Origin: Anaeroplasma bactoclasticum
GTDB taxonomy: Bacteria; Bacillota_I; Bacilli_A; Acholeplasmatales; Anaeroplasmataceae
NCBI RefSeq assembly: GCF_003550015.1
Contig: NZ_QXEV01000013.1
Location: forward strand, 1 to 51,414
DNA length: 51,414 bases
Direction of reading: 5' to 3'
A program made the position numbers and the translations under genes. Of this stretch, positions 5,715 to 51,414 are shown one piece after another; position 1 is the first letter of the stretch, and each line of letters opens with the position of its first letter. The notes below the pieces were generated by a model. The model made no database searches. It had not been told where the DNA came from and saw only the letters and a program-made list of their open reading frames with translations.

Positions 5715-8322
5715 TTAAATTAGCTAAGGACTTTAATACTTCCTCATATTGTTCCTTATATTCCTTTTGTTTTGCTTTTTCAGCATCAATCTTAGCCTGT
5801 GGGGCTTTAGAAATAAAGGATTCATTAGAAAGCATTTTCTCACTTCTAGCTAGCTCAGCTTCAAGCTTAGCCTTTGTAGCTTCTAGCTTCTTGATGGCTT
5901 CTTCTAGGTTAACTAAGTCCTCTGTTGGAATAAAAATTTTGCACATTGGAAGTACAACAATTACATAACGCTTACTATCTAAGCCCTCATCGCTTGTTAA
6001 GAATTCTAGCTTCTTAGGGTTAGTAAACTTGAATAAATATTTTGTTGTAGATGCGATTGTTTTAGATACTGCATTATCCTTAGCAACAATAGTTAAGGCA
6101 ATAGGCTCCTTTGGAGCTTTATTTGCTTTACTACGCTCATTTCTTACTGCAGTAATGATTTCAATCATATCATCGATAGCTTCTTTATCAAGCTCATCCT
6201 TGAATTCTTCTTTTACTGTAGGCCATTTAGAAATAGTAATGGATGCCTCTTTGTGAGGTAGTGCCTGGTAAATTTCTTCTGTGATGAATGGAATGAATGG
6301 GTGTAAAAGCTTTACGATAGCTCTTAGAACATATACTAATACATTCTTAGTCATCTGCTGCTCTTCTTTATCCTCGCTTTGTAAATCAACCTTGGATAAT
6401 TCAACATACCAAGATGCAAAATCATCCCAAACGAAGGAATATAGAGTTCTTGCAGCTTCACCAAATTCATATTTTTCCATGTTGTAATCAACATTTTCAA
6501 TAACCTTATTTAATTTAGATAAGATCCACTTAGATGGTAGGTTTAGCTTAGATACCTCAATTGAAGTTTCCTTATAGCCTGTACCTAAATTCATAAGTAC
6601 ATATCTTGAAATATTCCAAATCTTATTTAAATAATTCCAGCTAGATTCAATCTTTGTTTCATCAAATCTTAAGTCTAAGCCTGGGGCACTATTTGTAGTT
6701 AAGAAATATCTTAAGGAGTCTGTACCGTATTTTGCAATAACATCAAATGGGTCAACACCATTACCTAAGGATTTAGACATTTTTCTTCCTTGGCTATCAC
6801 GAATTAAGCCATGGATTAAAATATCTTTAAATGGTGCATGATGAGTAAATTCAACACCCTGGAATAGCATTCTTGCTACCCAGAAGAAAATAATATCATA
6901 TCCTGTAACTAATACGTTCGTTGGGTAATATCTTTCAAGTAGGTCAGTTTTTTCTGGCCAGCCAAGTGTTGAGAATGGCCATAGTGCACTTGAAAACCAA
7001 GTATCAAGTACATCTTCATCCTGAACCCAGCCCTCACCTGGACATTCAACTTGTACTTTTACTTCATTATCCTTATACCATGCAGGAATTCTATGACCCC
7101 ACCATAATTGACGAGATACACACCAATCCTGAATAGATTCAGGGTCTAACCAGTGCTCTAGAGTCTGTTTAAATCTTTGAGGTACGAAACGATATTCATC
7201 ATTTTCTAATACTTGCTTAGCAAGGACATCCATCTTAACGAACCACTGTTTAGATAATCTTGGTTCAACAACAACACCAGTTCTTTCACTATGTCCAACA
7301 GAGTGAACGATTGGCTCTGTTTTAACATATAGACCTTCCTTTTGTAAATCTTCAATGATATGTTTTCTACATTCAAAGCGGTCCATACCTTCATATTTAC
7401 CAGCCATAGAATTCATTGTACCATCATCATTCATACATAAAGGCATTGGTAGGTTATGACGCTTACCAACCTCAAAGTCGTTAGGGTCATGAGCTGGAGT
7501 AACCTTAACACAGCCTGTACCAAAATCCTTATCTACATAAGAATCTGCAATAACTGGAATTTCAATATTTGTAAGAGGGATTCTTACCTTCTTACCAATA
7601 ATATTTTTATATCTTTCATCCTCAGGATGAACCATAACTGCTTGGTCAGCAAACATAGTTTCTGGTCTTGTTGTAGCAATTGTAACATAGCCAGATCCAT
7701 CCGTTAGAGGGTAATTATAATGATAGAATGCACCCTCATCATCGGTATGCTCAACCTCAATATTCGATAGTGCAGTTTTAGCCTGGCAGTCCCAGTTAAT
7801 GATTCTTTCACCCTGATATAATAAGCCCTTATTATATAGAGTAATAAATACATGGTTTACTGCCTTATTTAAGCCCTCATCTAATGTAAATCTTTCCTTT
7901 GTATAATCTAAGGATAAGCCTAGTGCTGCCCACTGGCTTCTAATGAAGCCTGCATATTCATGCTTCCACTGCCATGCAACCTCTAAGAATTTTTCTCTTC
8001 CAAGATCATATCTTGAAATACCTTGTTCCTTTAATTTTGCATCAACCTTAGCCTGTGTTGCAATACCAGCATGGTCCATACCAGGAAGCCATAATGCATC
8101 ATAGCCCTGCATTCTTTTTCTTCTTATAATAATATCTTGTAATGTTGTATCCCAAGAATGTCCTAAATGTAATTTACCAGTTACATTTGGTGGTGGAATC
8201 ACAATAGTAAATGGTTCTTTGGATTTATCACCTGCAGTGAAGAATCCACCCTTAAGCCAAAAATCATATTTTCCAGCTTCTACTTCTTTAAAATCATATT
8301 TTGGTTTTAATTCCTTGCTCAT
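5707..8322 (-). CDS. valS: Valyl-tRNA synthetase
   Basis: 871 residues, full length. It carries PPPNVTGKLHLGH (HIGH at 52-55), the editing domain with ATTRPETMFADQAV and GTGCVKVTPAHDPND, WCVSRQLWWGHRIPAW, and KMSKS at 514-518. A Lys/Glu-rich C-terminal coiled-coil arm of about 65 residues follows, as in bacterial ValRS. It charges tRNA-Val in the cytosol. AAGGAAAG precedes the ATG, inside the end of the upstream acetyltransferase gene, which it overlaps by 29 bases. Control is by the T-box leader at the head of the operon. Confidence 0.98.
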   Translation of the reverse strand: MSKELKPKYDFKEVEAGKYDFWLKGGFFTAGDKSKEPFTIVIPPPNVTGKLHLGHSWDTTLQDIIIRRKRMQGYDALWLPGMDHAGIATQAKVDAKLKEQGISRYDLGREKFLEVAWQWKHEYAGFIRSQWAALGLSLDYTKERFTLDEGLNKAVNHVFITLYNKGLLYQGERIINWDCQAKTALSNIEVEHTDDEGAFYHYNYPLTDGSGYVTIATTRPETMFADQAVMVHPEDERYKNIIGKKVRIPLTNIEIPVIADSYVDKDFGTGCVKVTPAHDPNDFEVGKRHNLPMPLCMNDDGTMNSMAGKYEGMDRFECRKHIIEDLQKEGLYVKTEPIVHSVGHSERTGVVVEPRLSKQWFVKMDVLAKQVLENDEYRFVPQRFKQTLEHWLDPESIQDWCVSRQLWWGHRIPAWYKDNEVKVQVECPGEGWVQDEDVLDTWFSSALWPFSTLGWPEKTDLLERYYPTNVLVTGYDIIFFWVARMLFQGVEFTHHAPFKDILIHGLIRDSQGRKMSKSLGNGVDPFDVIAKYGTDSLRYFLTTNSAPGLDLRFDETKIESSWNYLNKIWNISRYVLMNLGTGYKETSIEVSKLNLPSKWILSKLNKVIENVDYNMEKYEFGEAARTLYSFVWDDFASWYVELSKVDLQSEDKEEQQMTKNVLVYVLRAIVKLLHPFIPFITEEIYQALPHKEASITISKWPTVKEEFKDELDKEAIDDMIEIITAVRNERSKANKAPKEPIALTIVAKDNAVSKTIASTTKYLFKFTNPKKLEFLTSDEGLDSKRYVIVVLPMCKIFIPTEDLVNLEEAIKKLEATKAKLEAELARSEKMLSNESFISKAPQAKIDAEKAKQKEYKEQYEEVLKSLANLNA

Positions 8323-8857
8323 ATTTAACTTTCCTTTCGTAATCCTCTTTTGTCATTGAATAAAAGTCAGCATCTATGATTCTTCCATCATATAGCTCCT
8401 TATATTTACATAATCTTCCATCATATAGGAATCCGCACTTCTCGATGACTCGCTTTGATGCAAAGTTATCGGAGTGGTGTCCTACCTCAATGACTTCACA
8501 ATCTGTTTTATGGAAGATGTAATCAATGACATTTAAAACGACCTCTGTCATGATTCCCTTGTTCCAATATTGGTCATTTAAGGAGAACCCAAGCTGCTTA
8601 ACATATTTATATTTTCTGATTCCGTAATTATAAATTGAAATGGTTCCGATCATTTTATGATTTTCAATAAGCTCGATTGCAAATACATCCTTTTGTAAAA
8701 TCATGGATGAGAAGACTCGGCGCCCTACCTCTTCATTTGGGATTGGCTTCCAACCCGCCATAGGACCTATAGTATCCCTTACTGCATATTCATAATAATC
8801 ATCAAAATCCTTAAAGCTTAAATCACGGATAATTACTCTTTTACATATTAATCTCAT
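8294..8857 (-). CDS. GNAT-family N-acetyltransferase (RimJ/RimL-like)
   Basis: 187 residues. It has the RimJ/RimL pattern: N-terminal RLICKRVIIRDLSFKDFDDYYEYA, a central strand ELIENHKMIGTISIYN, the acetyl-CoA site LGFSLNDQYWNKGIMTEVV, and the late ASKRVIEKCGF motif. Such enzymes acetylate protein N-termini or small amines; the substrate is unknown. It sits between the valine T-box and valS, so it is the first gene under tRNA-Val control. The ATG comes right after the T-run of the T-box terminator. Its only candidate Shine-Dalgarno, GAGGAC, is in the 3' arm of that hairpin, so translation may also depend on the leader fold. Confidence 0.85.
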   Translation of the reverse strand: MRLICKRVIIRDLSFKDFDDYYEYAVRDTIGPMAGWKPIPNEEVGRRVFSSMILQKDVFAIELIENHKMIGTISIYNYGIRKYKYVKQLGFSLNDQYWNKGIMTEVVLNVIDYIFHKTDCEVIEVGHHSDNFASKRVIEKCGFLYDGRLCKYKELYDGRIIDADFYSMTKEDYERKVKYEQGIKTKI

Positions 8858-9091
8858 AAAAAAAAGTCCTCAGGAATATAAATTCCTAAGGACGAATTAT
8901 CGCGGTACCACCTTAGTTCCATATATTACAAAATATATGACACTCCATTTACCCGTAACGAGGGGGACGCTTTGGCTAATTTCGATTTCTCACCAAAGAG
9001 CTCCATGACTACCTTCAATATAACTTTTAAGCATTCACACCAACCATGCTCTCTCTTTAAAAAGCTTCTATTTACTCCTTCATTTCAACGC
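8858..9091 (-). ncRNA. T-box leader (valine type)
   Basis: The minus strand has the T-box core AAGGTGGTACCGCG (8901-8914), followed by the terminator stem GTCCTTAGGAAT / ATTCCTGAGGAC and eight T residues (8858-8893). Upstream are the stem I elements AAGGAGTAAATAGA, AGAGAGAGC and GGTTGGTG. In the specifier region, GGTAGTCATGG contains two Val codons, GTA and GTC. GTC at 9007-9009 is the better candidate because it is followed by A. The gene order makes valine the expected amino acid. Uncharged tRNA-Val should pair with the leader and the UGGU bulge and favour the antiterminator. The exact specifier needs a structure model. Confidence 0.93.
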
Positions 9092-9097
9092 TATTTT

Positions 9098-45685: not shown

Positions 45686-46008
45686 TTATCTTCCCCCCAT
45701 ACCCATTCAGATTCTTTATTTGATTTTTTATACCTTTTTCGCTCAATAGGCTCACGAAGAATTATATTTTCCTTTTCAGGAATTAATACATTAAGATTCG
45801 TAATTAGATTTAGTCCATCCAAAATTCTTATTATATTAGAAAAACTACTATCAGAGCCATTTTCAATATTACTAATTGTCCTTAATGAAACTCCTACCTT
45901 TTTTGCAAATTCATTTTGTGTAATGGAAAGTCCTATTCTATATTCTCTTATTCTTTTTCCGATTTCTTGTAAAACTAGATCCATATTATATAAACCATCT
46001 ATTCTCAT
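45682..46008 (-). CDS. hipB: HipB-family XRE antitoxin
   Basis: 108 residues from the ATG at 46008 (AAGGTG spaced 6 bases; a GTG 9 bases upstream is less likely). The helix-turn-helix is IGLSITQNEFAKKVGVSLRTISNIENG (about 26-52). The C-terminal part is Lys/Arg/Glu-rich and ends EWVWGED, with aromatic residues that may contact HipA. It neutralises HipA and represses the operon through the repeats upstream. Confidence 0.92.
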   Translation of the reverse strand: MRIDGLYNMDLVLQEIGKRIREYRIGLSITQNEFAKKVGVSLRTISNIENGSDSSFSNIIRILDGLNLITNLNVLIPEKENIILREPIERKRYKKSNKESEWVWGEDK

Positions 46009-46044
46009 AGCTATCACCTTCGTATATATTTTACATCATTTTAA

Positions 46045-46107
46045 TATAATATGCAATATCTTGCTTATAATGTAAATACTATAACTATAATATGCAATAT
46101 TTTACAT
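46045..46107 (-). promoter_or_regulatory. hipBA operator repeats
   Basis: TATAATATGCAATAT occurs at 46045-46059 and 46086-46100, with similarity extending 7 bases further (TTgCtT / TTaCaT). The spacing is 41 bp, four helical turns. Each copy includes an AATAT-3-ATATT dyad and a TATAAT-like element. They are likely HipB sites over the promoter. Confidence 0.7.
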
Positions 46108-46125
46108 TTTATATGGAAAATACGG

Positions 46126-46155
46126 GATAAAATAAAAAGGCGATGGAATCGCCTT
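46126..46155 (-). terminator. Terminator of the paralogous lipoprotein pair
   Basis: Stem AAGGCGAT / ATCGCCTT, loop TCC, then TTTATTTTATC on the minus strand. Confidence 0.88.
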
Positions 46156-46171
46156 AGTATTTGAATATAGC

Positions 46172-47203
46172 TTATTCAACTGTAAAATATTTATCATATA
46201 TATTATTAGGATCATTTACCTCTGAATCAGCAAATAAAGCTTCATGGTTTGAATAGAATGGAAGAGGCTCATCATAAGAAAATTCTTGTTCTACTTCATA
46301 TTCTGTATATCCATCTAAGTACATAGAATCATCTAAAATGCTATCTTTAGATAAATATAATTCATAGAATTGTTCACGCTTTTGTGATTTTGATTCACTA
46401 ATCAAATAATATGCAGCAAATAATGGCTTTTTAACTCGAATACTCTTATACTGATATTTTGAACTTCCAGAATTAACTATATCATATATATAATTATCTT
46501 TAACATAGACCTCACATGAACTATTTAGGTAGTTATTAACCCGATAGCCATCTTTTACTAAGCTAGTAAAAGAAGATAGGTTTTCTTTTGAATCTAGATA
46601 TGCATTAGATTCCTGTGGATTAACCTTTGTATAAAGCTTTGCAGAACCTGATACACATTTATTTGCTAAAGCATAACTAGACCAATCACCGGCATCTATA
46701 TTAGAATTATGTACAATTAATCTATCTAGCTTAAAATCAGTTTTTACTATATAGTAGTTATCCTTCAAAACAAATTTTGTTTCTATTTCATTAACAAAAT
46801 TTAATGGTTTTCCATTATCATCATTATATTTAATAACTGCTTTTTCATAATGCCAACCAATATTAGAATTATAATCATAAACAGTTTTAGAATATACATA
46901 ATATTCCCCATTATTTGTATCTGAAGTAAATACATTATTATACTGTGATAACATAACTAAAGAATTATAATTTTCTTTATAATCCTTTAATTCTTCATCA
47001 GATGTTGCTTGATCTACACAAATATTATCAAAGTATTCCTGTTTTTCTTCAGCCTTCAATAGTTTTGCATCAGAATCTGCTTCTGGTGCTGTAATAGTAA
47101 AATCCTTATTTGTATTTAAATTTGATTTTGCATCACCACAGGATGCAAGTGCAATTGTAGCAACTGAAGCTACACTTAAAGTTAATAATAATTTCTTTTT
47201 CAT
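46172..47203 (-). CDS. Lipoprotein, paralogue of the neighbouring gene product
   Basis: 343 residues. MKKKLLLTLSVASVATIALA then SC gives a lipobox with Cys22. The body is rich in Tyr, Asn and Asp, with no recognised domain. It shares its layout with the next gene's product: NNDAKLLxxEEK near 45-55, DYxxNYxSxVMx, the YWYYEK/GWHYEK strand and LVLKDNxYIxKT. Probably a product of tandem duplication. It is 25 bases downstream of the paralogue, so co-transcribed. Surface location follows from the lipobox; function unknown. Confidence 0.75.
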   Translation of the reverse strand: MKKKLLLTLSVASVATIALASCGDAKSNLNTNKDFTITAPEADSDAKLLKAEEKQEYFDNICVDQATSDEELKDYKENYNSLVMLSQYNNVFTSDTNNGEYYVYSKTVYDYNSNIGWHYEKAVIKYNDDNGKPLNFVNEIETKFVLKDNYYIVKTDFKLDRLIVHNSNIDAGDWSSYALANKCVSGSAKLYTKVNPQESNAYLDSKENLSSFTSLVKDGYRVNNYLNSSCEVYVKDNYIYDIVNSGSSKYQYKSIRVKKPLFAAYYLISESKSQKREQFYELYLSKDSILDDSMYLDGYTEYEVEQEFSYDEPLPFYSNHEALFADSEVNDPNNIYDKYFTVE

Positions 47204-47228
47204 TTTTCTCTCTCCTCATATTTTTAAA

Positions 47229-48263
47229 TTATTCTACTTTTGTAACTGTAAAATTAGATTCATATACTTCCCTTGGAATAGAATTTACAACACCACTTGA
47301 AATAAAAGCTGTTGAGCTAGTTGCTGTATTTAGAAATGGTAGCATTTTTTGTTTATAATACTCAGTATAATCATATGCATATTCTTTGATATCAGATAGA
47401 TTTAATGAATCATCTAATAGATTATCCTTCACTAAATAATATTCACTAAAATACTCATTTGTATTCTTATCGTATTCCTTTGTATCATAATTATAATCAC
47501 TGTTTTCATATTTAGTATAATCATATATATATTCATTATCAGTAATTAGAATGTCCATATTGGAATTTCCATTTGAAATACAATAAGTATAATTATTTAA
47601 GGTATATACATCTGCACTTTCATAGTTTATAAATCTATTTCCTTCGGAATAATAATAAAAGCTTTGATTTAAATTCGTTACTTTAGCAAGTAGAATATCT
47701 TCAGTGAAGCTTTTAGAAAGGGTAGTATAAAATTCCGCCTTACCATTTACCTTATAGGTATTTTCCTTTGTATAACCAAAATCATCTTCTTTACATTCCC
47801 AGTATCTATAATTGTTTAAATTAAGACATGTTTTTGCAATATATTTATTATCCTTTAAAACAAGCTTTGTTTCAATTTCACTAATGTTCTTCTCTTCATT
47901 TACTGTTTTAATTTCTTTCTCATAATACCAATAAGTATTATTCTTATAATCTAAAATGAATTTACTCAAGTACTCTAAAGACTCTTCTTTAGTAGTAAAA
48001 CGTCTCTTACCAACCATTACAATAGAAGAATAATTATCCATATAATCTTTTACTTTATTTGAATCTACTGTATAGGATTTATAATTTTCATAAATTTGTG
48101 CTTTTTCTTCTTCTGTTAATAATTTCGCATTAGAATCCCAAGTATCTCTTAACGGCAAATCAAAATCCATAGATGTACTTAAAATACTATCTTGACTAGA
48201 GCAAGATGCTAAAGCGATACCTGTTACTACAATACCAAATAAACCAATAAATTTCTTTTTCAT
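47229..48263 (-). CDS. Lipoprotein, first of a paralogous pair
   Basis: 344 residues. MKKKFIGLFGIVVTGIALAS then C21 is the lipid-anchoring site. The sequence is Tyr/Asn/Asp-rich with strands KNNTYWYYEKEIK and LVLKDNKYIAKTCLN matching the downstream paralogue. No known domain. AAGAGGGAG precedes the start. A TTGACA promoter lies 36 bp upstream. Confidence 0.75.
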   Translation of the reverse strand: MKKKFIGLFGIVVTGIALASCSSQDSILSTSMDFDLPLRDTWDSNAKLLTEEEKAQIYENYKSYTVDSNKVKDYMDNYSSIVMVGKRRFTTKEESLEYLSKFILDYKNNTYWYYEKEIKTVNEEKNISEIETKLVLKDNKYIAKTCLNLNNYRYWECKEDDFGYTKENTYKVNGKAEFYTTLSKSFTEDILLAKVTNLNQSFYYYSEGNRFINYESADVYTLNNYTYCISNGNSNMDILITDNEYIYDYTKYENSDYNYDTKEYDKNTNEYFSEYYLVKDNLLDDSLNLSDIKEYAYDYTEYYKQKMLPFLNTATSSTAFISSGVVNSIPREVYESNFTVTKVE

Positions 48264-48298
48264 AATATTCTCCCTCTTGCATTTTTAAATGCAAATTT

Positions 48299-48327
48299 AT
48301 AATAATACCTAAGTATTCAATTGTCAA
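48299..48327 (-). promoter_or_regulatory. Promoter of the lipoprotein pair
   Basis: Perfect TTGACA, 17 bp, TATTAT on the minus strand, followed by a small GCATTT / AATGC hairpin in the leader. Confidence 0.75.
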
Positions 48328-48398
48328 TTATTAATTTATATAAATAATAACAGAGTTCTCTTCCATAATTTAACACTCCTTAAAGCACGTTTTCTCAC

Positions 48399-48525
48399 TT
48401 GAACCTCTCATGATTAAAATCATAAGATTCTAACTTCTAATAACGCTAAAGAGACTTTAGCGGCATAGATATAATGCTGATAAAGTTGCCTAAATCCTGT
48501 CTAGAAGACACATTATATCTACCTA
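48399..48525 (-). ncRNA. Omega-RNA (reRNA) region and right end of the TnpB element
   Basis: Directly after the tnpB stop, the minus strand has an 11-bp long-range stem TAGATATAATG / CATTATATCTA (48511-48521 with 48466-48476) enclosing a GTCT-TCT-AGAC hairpin. It is followed by a perfect hairpin CGCTAAAG-TCT-CTTTAGCG (48444-48462) and a last hairpin CTTATGAT-TTTA-ATCATGAG (48407-48426). Then GAGGTTCAA ends near 48399. This layout, with stable hairpins just before the element end, is typical of TnpB guide RNAs. The guide would be the flanking DNA starting GTGAGAAAACGTGC. The end point is inferred. Confidence 0.75.
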
Positions 48526-48538
48526 ACATATTAGACTA

Positions 48539-49882
48539 TTAGTTAATAACATTTAATAATACTTTAAATGTATTATATGTTAATTTTGTTCCACTCAAAG
48601 CTAAAGAAGCTTTTGTCTCTAGCTTTGACCTTGAACTTTCATCCAAGGGTTTTAATGTCTCTCTTATATAATATCTTGCTGCGATATTATATGATGCACT
48701 TAAATCACAATTATATATCTTTCCGCTTACAAATTTGCATATAGAATAATTATCATTATCTCTTTCTACCTCTCCAGATCCATCATATGCATATCTGCTT
48801 GTCCCATTTGGATTAACTGTTGATACTCTTATTCCATTTCTATGTGCCATTTCATATGCTTTATTATATATTGCTATCTTTCTCCAACGATGTAATCTTG
48901 CTCTAAAAGATCTTTTTGCTCTTTTGAATTTATGTCTTAAATTCTCAAATACTATTACATCTACTCCATATGATAAGCATATTTTTATAATTTGATTTAC
49001 AGTATGATTAACTATATTTTCATTAATTGAATTTATTTTATTATTAATATGTAGATTCCTTAAATATTTATAATTGCCACTATTCCTTTGTATTTTTCTT
49101 TTCTTATTAAGTAAATGATTCATTAGGTCTTTGTTATTAGTATTAATAAAATGTCTTCCTAAAATAGTGCCTTCATAATTCATTATACTTATTGTGGCAT
49201 CATTATTTACACCTAAGTCTACTCCACATATTATTCTTTTATTTAATTCTTTATCTTGAAGCTTTACATCTTCAATTTCAAATGAGAATTTTATATATAT
49301 CTTTTTTCCTATAATCTTTATTTCAGGATTATATCTTTTTCCATTTATTTTATTTATATATTTTAAATCATTTTTCTTTAATTTAAATTCTTCATATTTC
49401 CAAGTATTATCTTCATATATCTTTAATGCTATTTTATTATCAGATATTACTTTATACATATTATCTTTATAAAATGATGGTAGCATATTACATTTAGATA
49501 AGCTTGGTTCTCTTTTTTTAAATTTCTTCCCATTTGATATTTTATTATATCTTTCTTTTTTATAATTATCTAAATTAGATTTATATGAAACAATATGTCC
49601 AATAGCTTTTGATTCTATATCTCTTAATAAATAACATGGAAGCTTATAATACATTGAATCAAAATCATATTTTGCAATATTATTCTTTGTGTTATGTATT
49701 AAATGTTCTAAATACATTCTTCTTTCTAAATTATTTAATTCTTTTATTTCATCATAATGCATGAGCACTACATCACATACATAATTTAATGCAGAATTAT
49801 ATAAAGATAATGTATTAGCTACTATATGTCTTAATTTATTTGTATTATTTATAACTTCAACATTGTAGCTAACAACTGCCAT
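48539..49882 (-). CDS. tnpB: TnpB-family RNA-guided nuclease (IS200/IS605 type)
   Basis: 447 residues from the ATG at 49882 (GGAGGG upstream; an ATG 12 bases earlier has no site). RuvC-I GVDLGVNND gives Asp222, RuvC-II VIVFENL gives Glu313 and RuvC-III YNCDLSASYNIA gives Asp393, so the nuclease triad is kept. The zinc ribbon normally between II and III is degenerate: the first CxxC is replaced by TSRYAYDGSG, and only two scattered Cys remain. This matches a TnpB lineage I recall from gut Clostridia. No tnpA is near, so the element moves in trans or is fixed. Confidence 0.9.
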   Translation of the reverse strand: MAVVSYNVEVINNTNKLRHIVANTLSLYNSALNYVCDVVLMHYDEIKELNNLERRMYLEHLIHNTKNNIAKYDFDSMYYKLPCYLLRDIESKAIGHIVSYKSNLDNYKKERYNKISNGKKFKKREPSLSKCNMLPSFYKDNMYKVISDNKIALKIYEDNTWKYEEFKLKKNDLKYINKINGKRYNPEIKIIGKKIYIKFSFEIEDVKLQDKELNKRIICGVDLGVNNDATISIMNYEGTILGRHFINTNNKDLMNHLLNKKRKIQRNSGNYKYLRNLHINNKINSINENIVNHTVNQIIKICLSYGVDVIVFENLRHKFKRAKRSFRARLHRWRKIAIYNKAYEMAHRNGIRVSTVNPNGTSRYAYDGSGEVERDNDNYSICKFVSGKIYNCDLSASYNIAARYYIRETLKPLDESSRSKLETKASLALSGTKLTYNTFKVLLNVIN

Positions 49883-49940
49883 AATACCCTCCATTTTTAG
49901 TGCGATTAAGCTTTAAAAACCATAATAATTCTCCACCACT

Positions 49941-49949
49941 ATTATACCA
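49941..49949 (-). promoter_or_regulatory. Extended -10 promoter of tnpB
   Basis: TGGTATAAT, about 60 bp upstream of the tnpB start. There is no good -35. Confidence 0.5.
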
Positions 49950-50034
49950 TATTATAGGCTAAATCCGGCTTGGGAAAAATAGGAAAATTTATGTAGTATT
50001 ATTTAACTTTTTTAGGTTCTTTTTCTCAAAACCA

Positions 50035-50093
50035 ATACAACGAATAAGAGCCTAACTCGTAAATTAATTAACGAGTGTGCGGCCCTATTGTAT
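50035..50093. repeat. Long imperfect stem-loop element
   Basis: ATACAA (50035) pairs with TTGTAT (50093 end), AATA-AGAGCC pairs imperfectly with GGCCCTATT, and ACTCGT pairs with ACGAGT around an AT-rich loop. The whole 59 bp folds as one arm on either strand. It lies between tnpB and the YhhN-like gene and could be the left end of the TnpB element or an unrelated palindromic unit. Confidence 0.55.
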
Positions 50094-50122
50094 CAAATAA
50101 TTTATCAATATATTCTTTCACC

Positions 50123-50168
50123 AACCGCAAGTTTGGATTAAAATAAACCGCAAGTTTGGATTAAAATG
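50123..50168. repeat. 23-bp tandem repeat, two copies
   Basis: AACCGCAAGTTTGGATTAAA followed by ATA, then the same 20 bases followed by ATG: 22 of 23 positions identical, adjacent with no spacer. Confidence 0.85.
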
Positions 50169-50204
50169 AATATAAGATGGCCAAATTAAATTTTTTTTAT
50201 TTTT

Positions 50205-50240
50205 AGACATAATAAAAAGCAACCCCTCCCTGGGTTGCTT
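50205..50240 (-). terminator. Terminator of the YhhN-like gene
   Basis: Stem AAGCAACCC / GGGTTGCTT then TTTATTATG on the minus strand. Confidence 0.88.
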
Positions 50241-50247
50241 AAATATA

Positions 50248-50970
50248 TTAATTACTATTTATATTCTTTTTATTATGTATAAAGCATAATAACATAAAAT
50301 TTGCCATCATGTAGGTTGGCCAAATAATAAATGATGATATATCATTAATTACTTTAGGCTCTTTTATAGTACTTCTTATTCCAATGAATGTATCTGAGAT
50401 AAATGCTAGTGTTACTGCTAGTGATAAGAATAGATTAGATATATTTTTATCTTTACTATATCTAATCCAAGAAATAACCATATTTACTATTAATACTTCT
50501 GCTAAAGTTATAGTTATAAAGGATTGGAATGTAAATTTATTTAATATGAATAATAAAATAGTTCCTACTGCAAATAATACTACTCTTATAATTATTTCTA
50601 TATAATGCTTATATAAAAATATCATTATTAAAGAATAAGCTATTAAAAATGTAATAATACCACCTAAGGATATTTTTAATATAGAAAAGAATATATCTGC
50701 AATAATAATAGTAAAAAAATAGATAATAATAAGTCCATTTTTGGCTATTATTTTATTTTTATTATTTCTTATATAGAAATATAATCCAAAGATGAAATAT
50801 AAAACTACAGAGGATATTTTAAGTGTTGTGAATGTTATTTCTATAGGATCATTATATGATCTATCTACATATAGACCATCTTTAATTCTTAAGGATATTA
50901 AAAGAATTATACCAAGCATTAATAATGCTTCTATTATGAATGCAATATATAATATATGCCTATTTTTCAT
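50248..50970 (-). CDS. Multi-spanning membrane protein, YhhN-like
   Basis: 240 residues with about eight hydrophobic helices. The C-terminal half reads LAVTLAFISDTFIGIRSTI and then FIIWPTYMMANFMLLCF, matching the YhhN pattern of an (S/G)D motif in helix 7 and a Y-x2-A-x2-L motif in the last helix. An earlier IIADIFFSI fits the second conserved Asp. YhhN proteins include lysoplasmalogenases; the similarity here is moderate. The ATG overlaps the stop of the upstream reading frame as ATGA, so the two were translated together. Confidence 0.55.
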   Translation of the reverse strand: MKNRHILYIAFIIEALLMLGIILLISLRIKDGLYVDRSYNDPIEITFTTLKISSVVLYFIFGLYFYIRNNKNKIIAKNGLIIIYFFTIIIADIFFSILKISLGGIITFLIAYSLIMIFLYKHYIEIIIRVVLFAVGTILLFILNKFTFQSFITITLAEVLIVNMVISWIRYSKDKNISNLFLSLAVTLAFISDTFIGIRSTIKEPKVINDISSFIIWPTYMMANFMLLCFIHNKKNINSN

Positions 50971-51215
50971 TTTTTAATAACCTCTAAGAATTCCTTATGG
51001 CTATTTAGTGGTATTGCAGTAAAATTAAAATTCTTGCACCAGGAAGGATAGTTTTCTTCCATAATGGCTTTAGCTTCTTCCATTGAATTTAATTCTCCTG
51101 TAAACCAAATGAGCTTCATATGCTCCTTATCCTCTTTTACACTATCCTTTTGTCTTACAGCTAGTAATGCTTTATATTCTTTATTACTTTGTGTTTCCCC
51201 ATTTTTTAATAAAGG
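50967..51215 (-). pseudogene. 5'-truncated gene coupled to the YhhN-like gene
   Basis: An open frame without a good start covers about 83 codons (LLKNGETQSNKEYKALLAVR, ... MKLIWFTGELNSMEEAKAIM, ... AIPLNSHKEFLEVIKK) and ends in an ATGA overlap with the next gene. The only ATG (51119) would give 50 residues and has AAGGAG just 3 bases away. The coding-like sequence upstream of it suggests loss of the true 5' end, perhaps through insertion of the element that starts near 51220. No family is recognised. Confidence 0.5.
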
Positions 51216-51224
51216 GTAAAAATG

Positions 51225-51254
51225 ATAAAAAAATATCCAGGTAGAAATACCTGG
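51225..51254 (-). terminator. Hairpin with minus-strand T-run
   Basis: Stem CCAGGTA / TACCTGG, then ATATTTTTTTAT on the minus strand. It lies just before the truncated frame and insulates it from upstream transcription. Confidence 0.6.
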
Positions 51255-51272
51255 GTTTTGTGTCTTATATAA

Positions 51273-51301
51273 GTGAAAAAAGACCTCAAAAATGGTATAA
51301 T
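51273..51301 (+). promoter_or_regulatory. Promoter of the gene at the window end
   Basis: GTGAAA, 17 bp, TATAAT with an extended TGG before the -10. Confidence 0.6.
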
Positions 51302-51341
51302 TAAATTGGCAAAAATAACTAAATACCAGAGGACTTTTTCC

Positions 51342-51414
51342 ATGAAAAATTATAGCACTTTAAACGATATTTTAAAAGATGAAATTGTTAATTATATAAA
51401 GGATATTACAAAAG
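51342..51414 (+). CDS. Start of a gene running off the window
   Basis: Twenty-four codons are visible: MKNYSTLNDILKDEIVNYIK then DITK. AGAGGAC lies 8 bases before the ATG and a promoter lies 40 bp upstream. The position next to a truncated gene makes a transposase possible, but the visible residues are too few to identify a family. Confidence 0.5.
   Translation, partial: MKNYSTLNDILKDEIVNYIKDITK

What the first reader, a model, noticed from the sequence alone, without database searches (positions are those of the whole stretch)
48399..49882. TnpB nuclease with a well-formed omega-RNA but no zinc-ribbon cysteines and no TnpA
All three RuvC carboxylates (Asp222, Glu313, Asp393) are present, while the zinc ribbon is replaced by TSRYAYDGSG...SICKFVSGKIYNC. 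The 3' flank folds into three hairpins plus an 11-bp closing stem, ending in GAGGTTCAA, as TnpB guide RNAs do. A zinc-less but catalytically complete TnpB with its RNA is a candidate compact RNA-guided nuclease or a domesticated one. That this lineage recurs in gut Clostridia is from memory.
Basis: partly seen in the sequence, partly recalled or inferred. Interest (0 to 1): 0.8.

Follow-up and report, generated by a model that had tools for sequence, protein, structure and literature searches.

The report
IS605-type transposon with zinc-free TnpB
This is an ordinary IS200/IS605-type jumping gene that has lost its transposase but keeps an intact gene for an RNA-guided DNA-cutting enzyme (TnpB) and its guide RNA; the one mildly unusual point is that the enzyme belongs to a widespread branch in which the usual zinc-binding knob is replaced by a conserved zinc-free motif.

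Summary
A TnpB gene (48539-49882, minus strand, 447 aa) carries RuvC residues D222, E313 and D393 and no Cys4 zinc ribbon. Its 3' flank is a structured, covarying RNA ending exactly at TTCAA (48399). Twenty other right ends in the host's genus and family share that boundary with different flanks. Of 20 left ends, 17 lie directly 3' of TTGAT, the published ISDra2 target site and TAM. The element is therefore 48399-50091, a 1,693-bp IS200/IS605-family element.

(1) The missing TnpA is a local deletion: sibling copies carry a full Y1 tnpA directly upstream of tnpB, and this copy keeps the left end and a tnpA start remnant. No Y1 transposase was found in the genome, so the copy looks stranded; nothing shows domestication. 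(2) Zinc loss is clade-wide: all 27 members examined (Bacillota, Pseudomonadota, Cyanobacteriota) lack a Cys4 set and share TSxxA(Y/F)DG(S/T)G...F..GKxY; many sit beside a tnpA.

Best reading: a nuclease guided by its right-end RNA to TTGAT-flanked empty sites. No activity was tested. It is a new member of a known kind, in a zinc-free clade I could not find described.

The parts
48399..50091 (-). whole IS200/IS605-family element (1693 bp), tnpA deleted
   Evidence: right boundary shared by 21 right ends; left boundary directly 3' of TTGAT as in 17 of 20 left ends; homology of the left flank to an ATPase gene on contig C36 stops at the same place
48539..49882 (-). tnpB, 447 aa, zinc-free TNB domain, RuvC D222/E313/D393 intact
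48399..48543 (-). omega-RNA scaffold (145 nt modelled; true 5' end unknown), overlapping the tnpB stop codon
   Evidence: fold z -3.79; the L010 copy independently folds the same way, z -5.33; covariation; no Rfam match
48406..48430 (-). right-end subterminal hairpin with preceding GAAT: by analogy the TnpA recognition hairpin, here also the 3' hairpin of the omega-RNA
   Evidence: conserved in the sibling copies; similarity to the IS608 right end is from general knowledge
48399..48403 (-). TTCAA right terminus; the next base 3' starts the guide
48379..48398 (-). predicted guide sequence (GTGAGAAAACGTGCTTTAAG), host DNA next to the right end
   Evidence: position by analogy with ISDra2 reRNA (PMC8612924); inferred
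50092..50096 (-). TTGAT target site, predicted TAM
   Evidence: TTGAT directly 5' of 17 of 20 left ends; same as the published ISDra2 TAM
50048..50086 (-). left-end subterminal hairpin
   Evidence: conserved among left ends of sibling copies
49883..49946 (-). -10-like TATAAT (49941-49946) and remnant tnpA start codon (ATG at 49923) left after deletion of most of tnpA
   Evidence: comparison with upstream regions of L009, L013 and L015; read from the sequence, not called by the promoter scan

Best explanation
This is an IS200/IS605-family insertion sequence from which tnpA has been deleted. The remaining tnpB is transcribed through the right end into adjacent host DNA. TnpB binds the 3' RNA (omega-RNA), whose scaffold ends at TTCAA and whose guide is the next 16-20 nt of host DNA. 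The complex cuts double-stranded DNA at TTGAT followed by the guide match, which is the empty donor site, so that repair restores the element. The zinc ribbon of the TNB domain is replaced throughout this clade by a zinc-free segment (TSxxAYDGSGxVxR...F..GKxY), which I infer holds the RuvC-III region in place without a metal. With no Y1 transposase found in the genome, this copy is probably immobile. Shown here: boundaries, TTGAT site, RNA structure with covariation, TnpB/Cas12f fold, catalytic residues, clade-wide zinc loss, tnpA deletion. Inferred: transcription, RNA binding, cutting, and the role of the replacement segment.
For: Sequence: all 11 aligned members hit NCBIfam guided_TnpB and TIGR01766; TIGR01766 is above its cut-off for the window protein. 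Fold: AlphaFold2 model (mean pLDDT 82.2) matches AsCas12f1 7wju (Z 20.3, rmsd 5.2, 359 aligned) and ISDra2 TnpB 8h1j (Z 18.5, rmsd 5.3, 341 aligned). Ends: TTCAA on the right and TTGAT on the left across independent insertions. RNA: same architecture folded independently in diverged copies; 91.2% of cells paired against 84.5% in shuffles, with two compensatory switches in the closing stem. Selection: dN/dS 0.27 against the 71%-identical L010 and 0.32 against the 96%-identical L009. Relatives with tnpA: L009, L010, L013 and plasmid copies. Precedent for guide, TAM and proposed role: PMC8612924, PMC10278001.
Against: No biochemical or transcript data. The window protein scores below the NF040570 cut-off (71.6 against 100) and the PF07282 gathering score (17.1 against 26.3). 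The zinc-ribbon segment is among the less certain parts of the model (block pLDDT 58-62 at residues 371-390). Left and right flanks do not form one continuous gene, so the donor joint that the guide would target may no longer exist anywhere.
Confidence: 0.8

Rival explanations
1. The copy is a decaying remnant: with tnpA lost, tnpB is simply not yet mutated and does nothing at present.
For: tnpA is deleted and no Y1 transposase was found in the genome. Protein identity to the L009 copy is 96%, so an intact ORF needs little selection, and dN/dS against L009 is only 0.32. Flanks are rearranged.
Against: ORF, ribosome-binding motif, omega-RNA stems, TTCAA and TTGAT are all intact. The short hairpin of this copy differs from its siblings by paired changes that keep the stem (CGCUAAAG/CUUUAGCG against CGUUAUAG/CUAUAACG).
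Confidence: 0.25
2. TnpB and its RNA have been domesticated by the host, for example as a regulator or a defence nuclease.
For: tnpB is kept without tnpA; the protein has a Cas12f-like fold.
Against: The catalytic triad is intact, unlike nuclease-dead repressors. Copy number and position vary among sibling genomes and many contigs break inside the element, as for a mobile repeat. The ends are intact mobile-element ends.
Confidence: 0.05
3. The protein is nuclease-inactive because the zinc ribbon is gone, and acts only by RNA-guided binding.
For: In ISDra2 TnpB the TNB domain holds a Cys4 zinc site (PMC10097598).
Against: D222, E313 and D393 are all kept in 26 of 27 clade members, which a pure binder would not need. 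[quoted passage not shown]
Confidence: 0.08

Closest known systems
ISDra2 (IS200/IS605 family, Deinococcus radiodurans) TnpB and reRNA
   Same: TTGAT target site and TAM, guide taken from DNA 3' of the right end, 3' hairpin shared by element end and RNA, same overall fold (8h1j Z 18.5)
   Different: ISDra2 TnpB has a CCCC zinc finger (C331, C334, C351, C354) and its tnpA; identity over the structural alignment is 13%
IS608-type right end (IS200/IS605 family)
   Same: GAAT before and TCAA after the terminal hairpin (IS608 features from general knowledge, not tested)
   Different: IS608 uses TTAC as target, this element TTGAT; tnpA is lost in this copy
Derived TnpBs (RuvC-III NADXN) of Nety et al. 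2023, PMC10278001
   Same: some members of the present clade read NADLN at RuvC-III; the published Derived omega-RNA model has two 5' stem-loops plus a 3' stem-loop, as here
   Different: the window itself reads NCDLS; whether the published clade contains zinc-free members could not be checked
AsCas12f1 (type V-F CRISPR effector)
   Same: best structural match (7wju Z 20.3, rmsd 5.2, 359 aligned)
   Different: works with CRISPR-derived RNA; here the RNA comes from a transposon end

Membership tests
IS200/IS605 family element | subterminal hairpins at both ends and a fixed target motif 5' of the left end | tested here: met
   TTGAT left, TTCAA right, hairpins at both ends
IS200/IS605 family element | Y1 (HuH) TnpA transposase encoded by the element or available in trans | tested here: not met
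   absent from this copy and no PF01797 match in the genome; present in sibling copies L009, L010, L013, so this is a deletion derivative of such an element rather than an autonomous member
TnpB RNA-guided nuclease | overall TnpB/Cas12 domain architecture and fold | tested here: met
TnpB RNA-guided nuclease | RuvC D-E-D catalytic triad | tested here: met
   D222, E313, D393
TnpB RNA-guided nuclease | Cys4 zinc ribbon in the TNB domain (usual, as in ISDra2; not required of all TnpB/Cas12 enzymes) | tested here: not met
   no Cys4 set in any of 27 clade members; controls L039 and L021b have it
TnpB RNA-guided nuclease | structured RNA at the right end with fixed 3' boundary | tested here: met
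TnpB RNA-guided nuclease | RNA-guided, TAM-dependent dsDNA cleavage | not testable with these tools
   needs a cleavage or interference assay
Cas12f (type V-F CRISPR) | CRISPR array next to the effector gene | tested here: not met
   no array-like direct repeats in window 46000-51414; only two two-copy tandem repeats
TldR (nuclease-dead TnpB repressor) | loss of RuvC catalytic residues | tested here: not met
   triad intact

The most novel reading that the evidence does not exclude
A TnpB clade spread over at least three phyla replaced the TNB zinc ribbon with a conserved zinc-free motif while keeping full RNA-guided cutting, giving a natural metal-site-free TNB domain that may load or release its DNA target differently from ISDra2-type enzymes.
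Probability: 0.45. Interest if true: 0.5.

Novelty: new member of a known kind. Interest (0 to 1): 0.32.

Why it matters
It gives a precisely bounded element with target motif, guide position and RNA scaffold ready for a direct assay. It also shows that the zinc ribbon often treated as part of TnpB is missing from a whole conserved clade that keeps its catalytic triad and, in many members, its transposase, which would help separate the essential parts of TnpB from the optional ones. The single copy itself is ordinary.

Tried and rejected
Rfam searches gave no omega-RNA match at either threshold, only a sub-threshold chance-level hit inside the gene. A single-sequence search of the PDB found nothing; the alignment profile did. 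A single-protein query of viral contigs found nothing; the alignment query found 13 loci. The promoter scan did not call the visible TATAAT on the minus strand. An empty site was sought in sibling genomes with the right flank; no match reached the element border apart from the window itself and short weak ones, so none was established. The PNAS 2023 TnpB/Cas12 classification paper is not held, so whether this clade was already described as zinc-free is unresolved; text searches for zinc-less TnpB found no such statement.

Considered and rejected: zinc bound by the two remaining Cys (C382, C392), because neither is conserved in the Bacillus, Alteromonas, Allochromatium or cyanobacterial members. 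A pseudoknot between AACUU (loop of the long hairpin) and AAGUU (3' side of the closing stem) is possible by sequence, but both are invariant and it competes with the closing stem, so it is not claimed. A CRISPR association was rejected for lack of an array.

Full report
What is there. On the minus strand a 447-aa ORF (48539-49882) encodes a TnpB-family protein. The longest ORF starts at 49894, but that ATG overlaps the GGAGGG motif and relatives start at the equivalent of 49882. RuvC residues D222, E313 and D393 are present.

Element boundaries. The gene and its flanks were compared with sibling copies in the host's genus and family (host assembly G000, 99% complete; near relatives are titled Bacillales bacterium UBA3206 and Acholeplasmatales in the public records). 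On the right, all homology ends at ...GAGGTTCAA, window 48399, in 21 right ends including this one, with different flanks. On the left, homology begins directly after TTGAT in 17 of 20 left ends; the exceptions are ATGAT in L009, GTGAT in L102, and L083, a weak match. In the window this gives TTGAT at 50092-50096 and the element at 48399-50091. Independent support comes from contig C36 of the same genome: a related gene start (MKEYIDRLFDKELDFYLKTTGAVLVVGPKWCGKST..., an ATPase by its P-loop) matches the window's left flank up to the same TTGAT and then continues into its own sequence. The window's right flank is not the rest of that gene, so the flanks were rearranged after insertion or the gene was already broken.

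Missing TnpA. L009, L010 and L013 carry a complete Y1 transposase (MKHGRGYVYDLYYHIVWCVKYRHK...HVH...) between the left end and tnpB. The window copy keeps the left-end hairpin, a TATAAT box and an ATG at 49923 followed by a few codons and a stop; the rest of tnpA is gone. L015 shows a different internal deletion. A genome-wide search for Pfam Y1_Tnp found none. The absence is thus a local loss that leaves this copy stranded.

Guide RNA. The 145 nt ending at 48399 fold into a two-part closing stem (CUAAU/GUUAG and UCUAAUA/UAUUAGA), a long branched hairpin, a short hairpin and the terminal hairpin (z -3.79). The L010 copy, very different in the middle, folds alone into the same architecture (z -5.33). 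On a sequence-only alignment the window structure keeps 91.2% of cells paired, 9 pairs have changes on both sides against 5.3 in shuffles, and sliding the partners destroys it. MAFFT misaligned the long hairpin between the two subfamilies, so these counts understate the support. The structure was derived from the window sequence, so the cells-paired figure leans towards it; the independent fold of L010 does not. Several more distant members end in GAGG(C)TTCA(C/G).

Zinc ribbon. In 27 clade members (two of them near-duplicate fragments) none has a Cys4 set; the region reads TSxxA(Y/F)DG(S/T)Gx(V/L)xR ... F..GKxY(N/H/S)(C/A/S)DL(S/N)A(S/T)YNI in nearly all. Two canonical TnpBs run alongside do have the cysteines. 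The D-E-D triad is complete in all but L021 (D393N). Members come from Bacillota, Pseudomonadota and Cyanobacteriota, and many lie next to a tnpA. Zinc loss therefore appears ancestral to this clade and compatible with continued mobility.

Structure. AlphaFold2 with 12 sequences gives mean pLDDT 82.2, pTM 0.54. Leading matches are AsCas12f1 (Z 20.3) and, a little lower, ISDra2 TnpB (Z 18.5). The zinc-ribbon segment is modelled with lower confidence, so its replacement fold is not established.

Mechanism. By the ISDra2 precedent (TTGAT TAM, guide from the 3' flank, proposed cutting of the donor joint; PMC8612924; PMC10278001), the copy would express TnpB plus an omega-RNA with guide GTGAGAAAACGTGCTTTAAG and cut TTGAT followed by that sequence. 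Expression, RNA binding and cutting are all inference. Purifying selection between subfamilies (dN/dS 0.27) speaks for function of the lineage, less so for this copy.

Novelty. The element is a new member of a known family. The zinc-free state is unusual relative to the solved ISDra2 TnpB, but it is clade-wide, and a second, differently built zinc-free TnpB exists in the same genome. I found no paper that describes this clade as zinc-free, but the main classification paper was not readable here.

Noticed in passing
L114:376-1800 (G000:C6, near 87210): A second TnpB-family protein in the same genome (475-aa ORF, above the NF040570 cut-off) also lacks zinc-ribbon cysteines (YTSASSFYDNDEIK...INADINAALNI) and has Gly at the aligned RuvC-II Glu position; it may belong to the published RuvC-II-rearranged TnpB clades.
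   Followed up: partly
window 50123-50168: Two tandem 23-bp repeats containing TTTTAATCCAAACTTGCGG upstream of the truncated ATPase gene start; the same pair lies upstream of the related ATPase gene on C36 and nowhere else in the genome. Possibly an operator.
   Followed up: partly
G000:C36, 15627 onward (L003): The ATPase-like gene related to the window's left flank is itself frameshifted (the protein continues in another frame after about 55 codons).
   Followed up: no
L021:2497-3838 (Ruminococcus albus plasmid pRUMAL01): A clade member with the RuvC-III Asp changed to Asn and only a 90-bp annotated transposase fragment upstream; a candidate inactive copy.
   Followed up: no
window 46172-47203 and 47229-48263: Two adjacent lipoprotein-like genes of similar length beside the element; the region around the start of the second has two 75-78% similar matches on contig C2 of the same genome.
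   Followed up: no
window 8885-9097: T-box leader (Rfam RF00230, 133 bits, minus strand) upstream of the ORF at 8294-8857.
   Followed up: no
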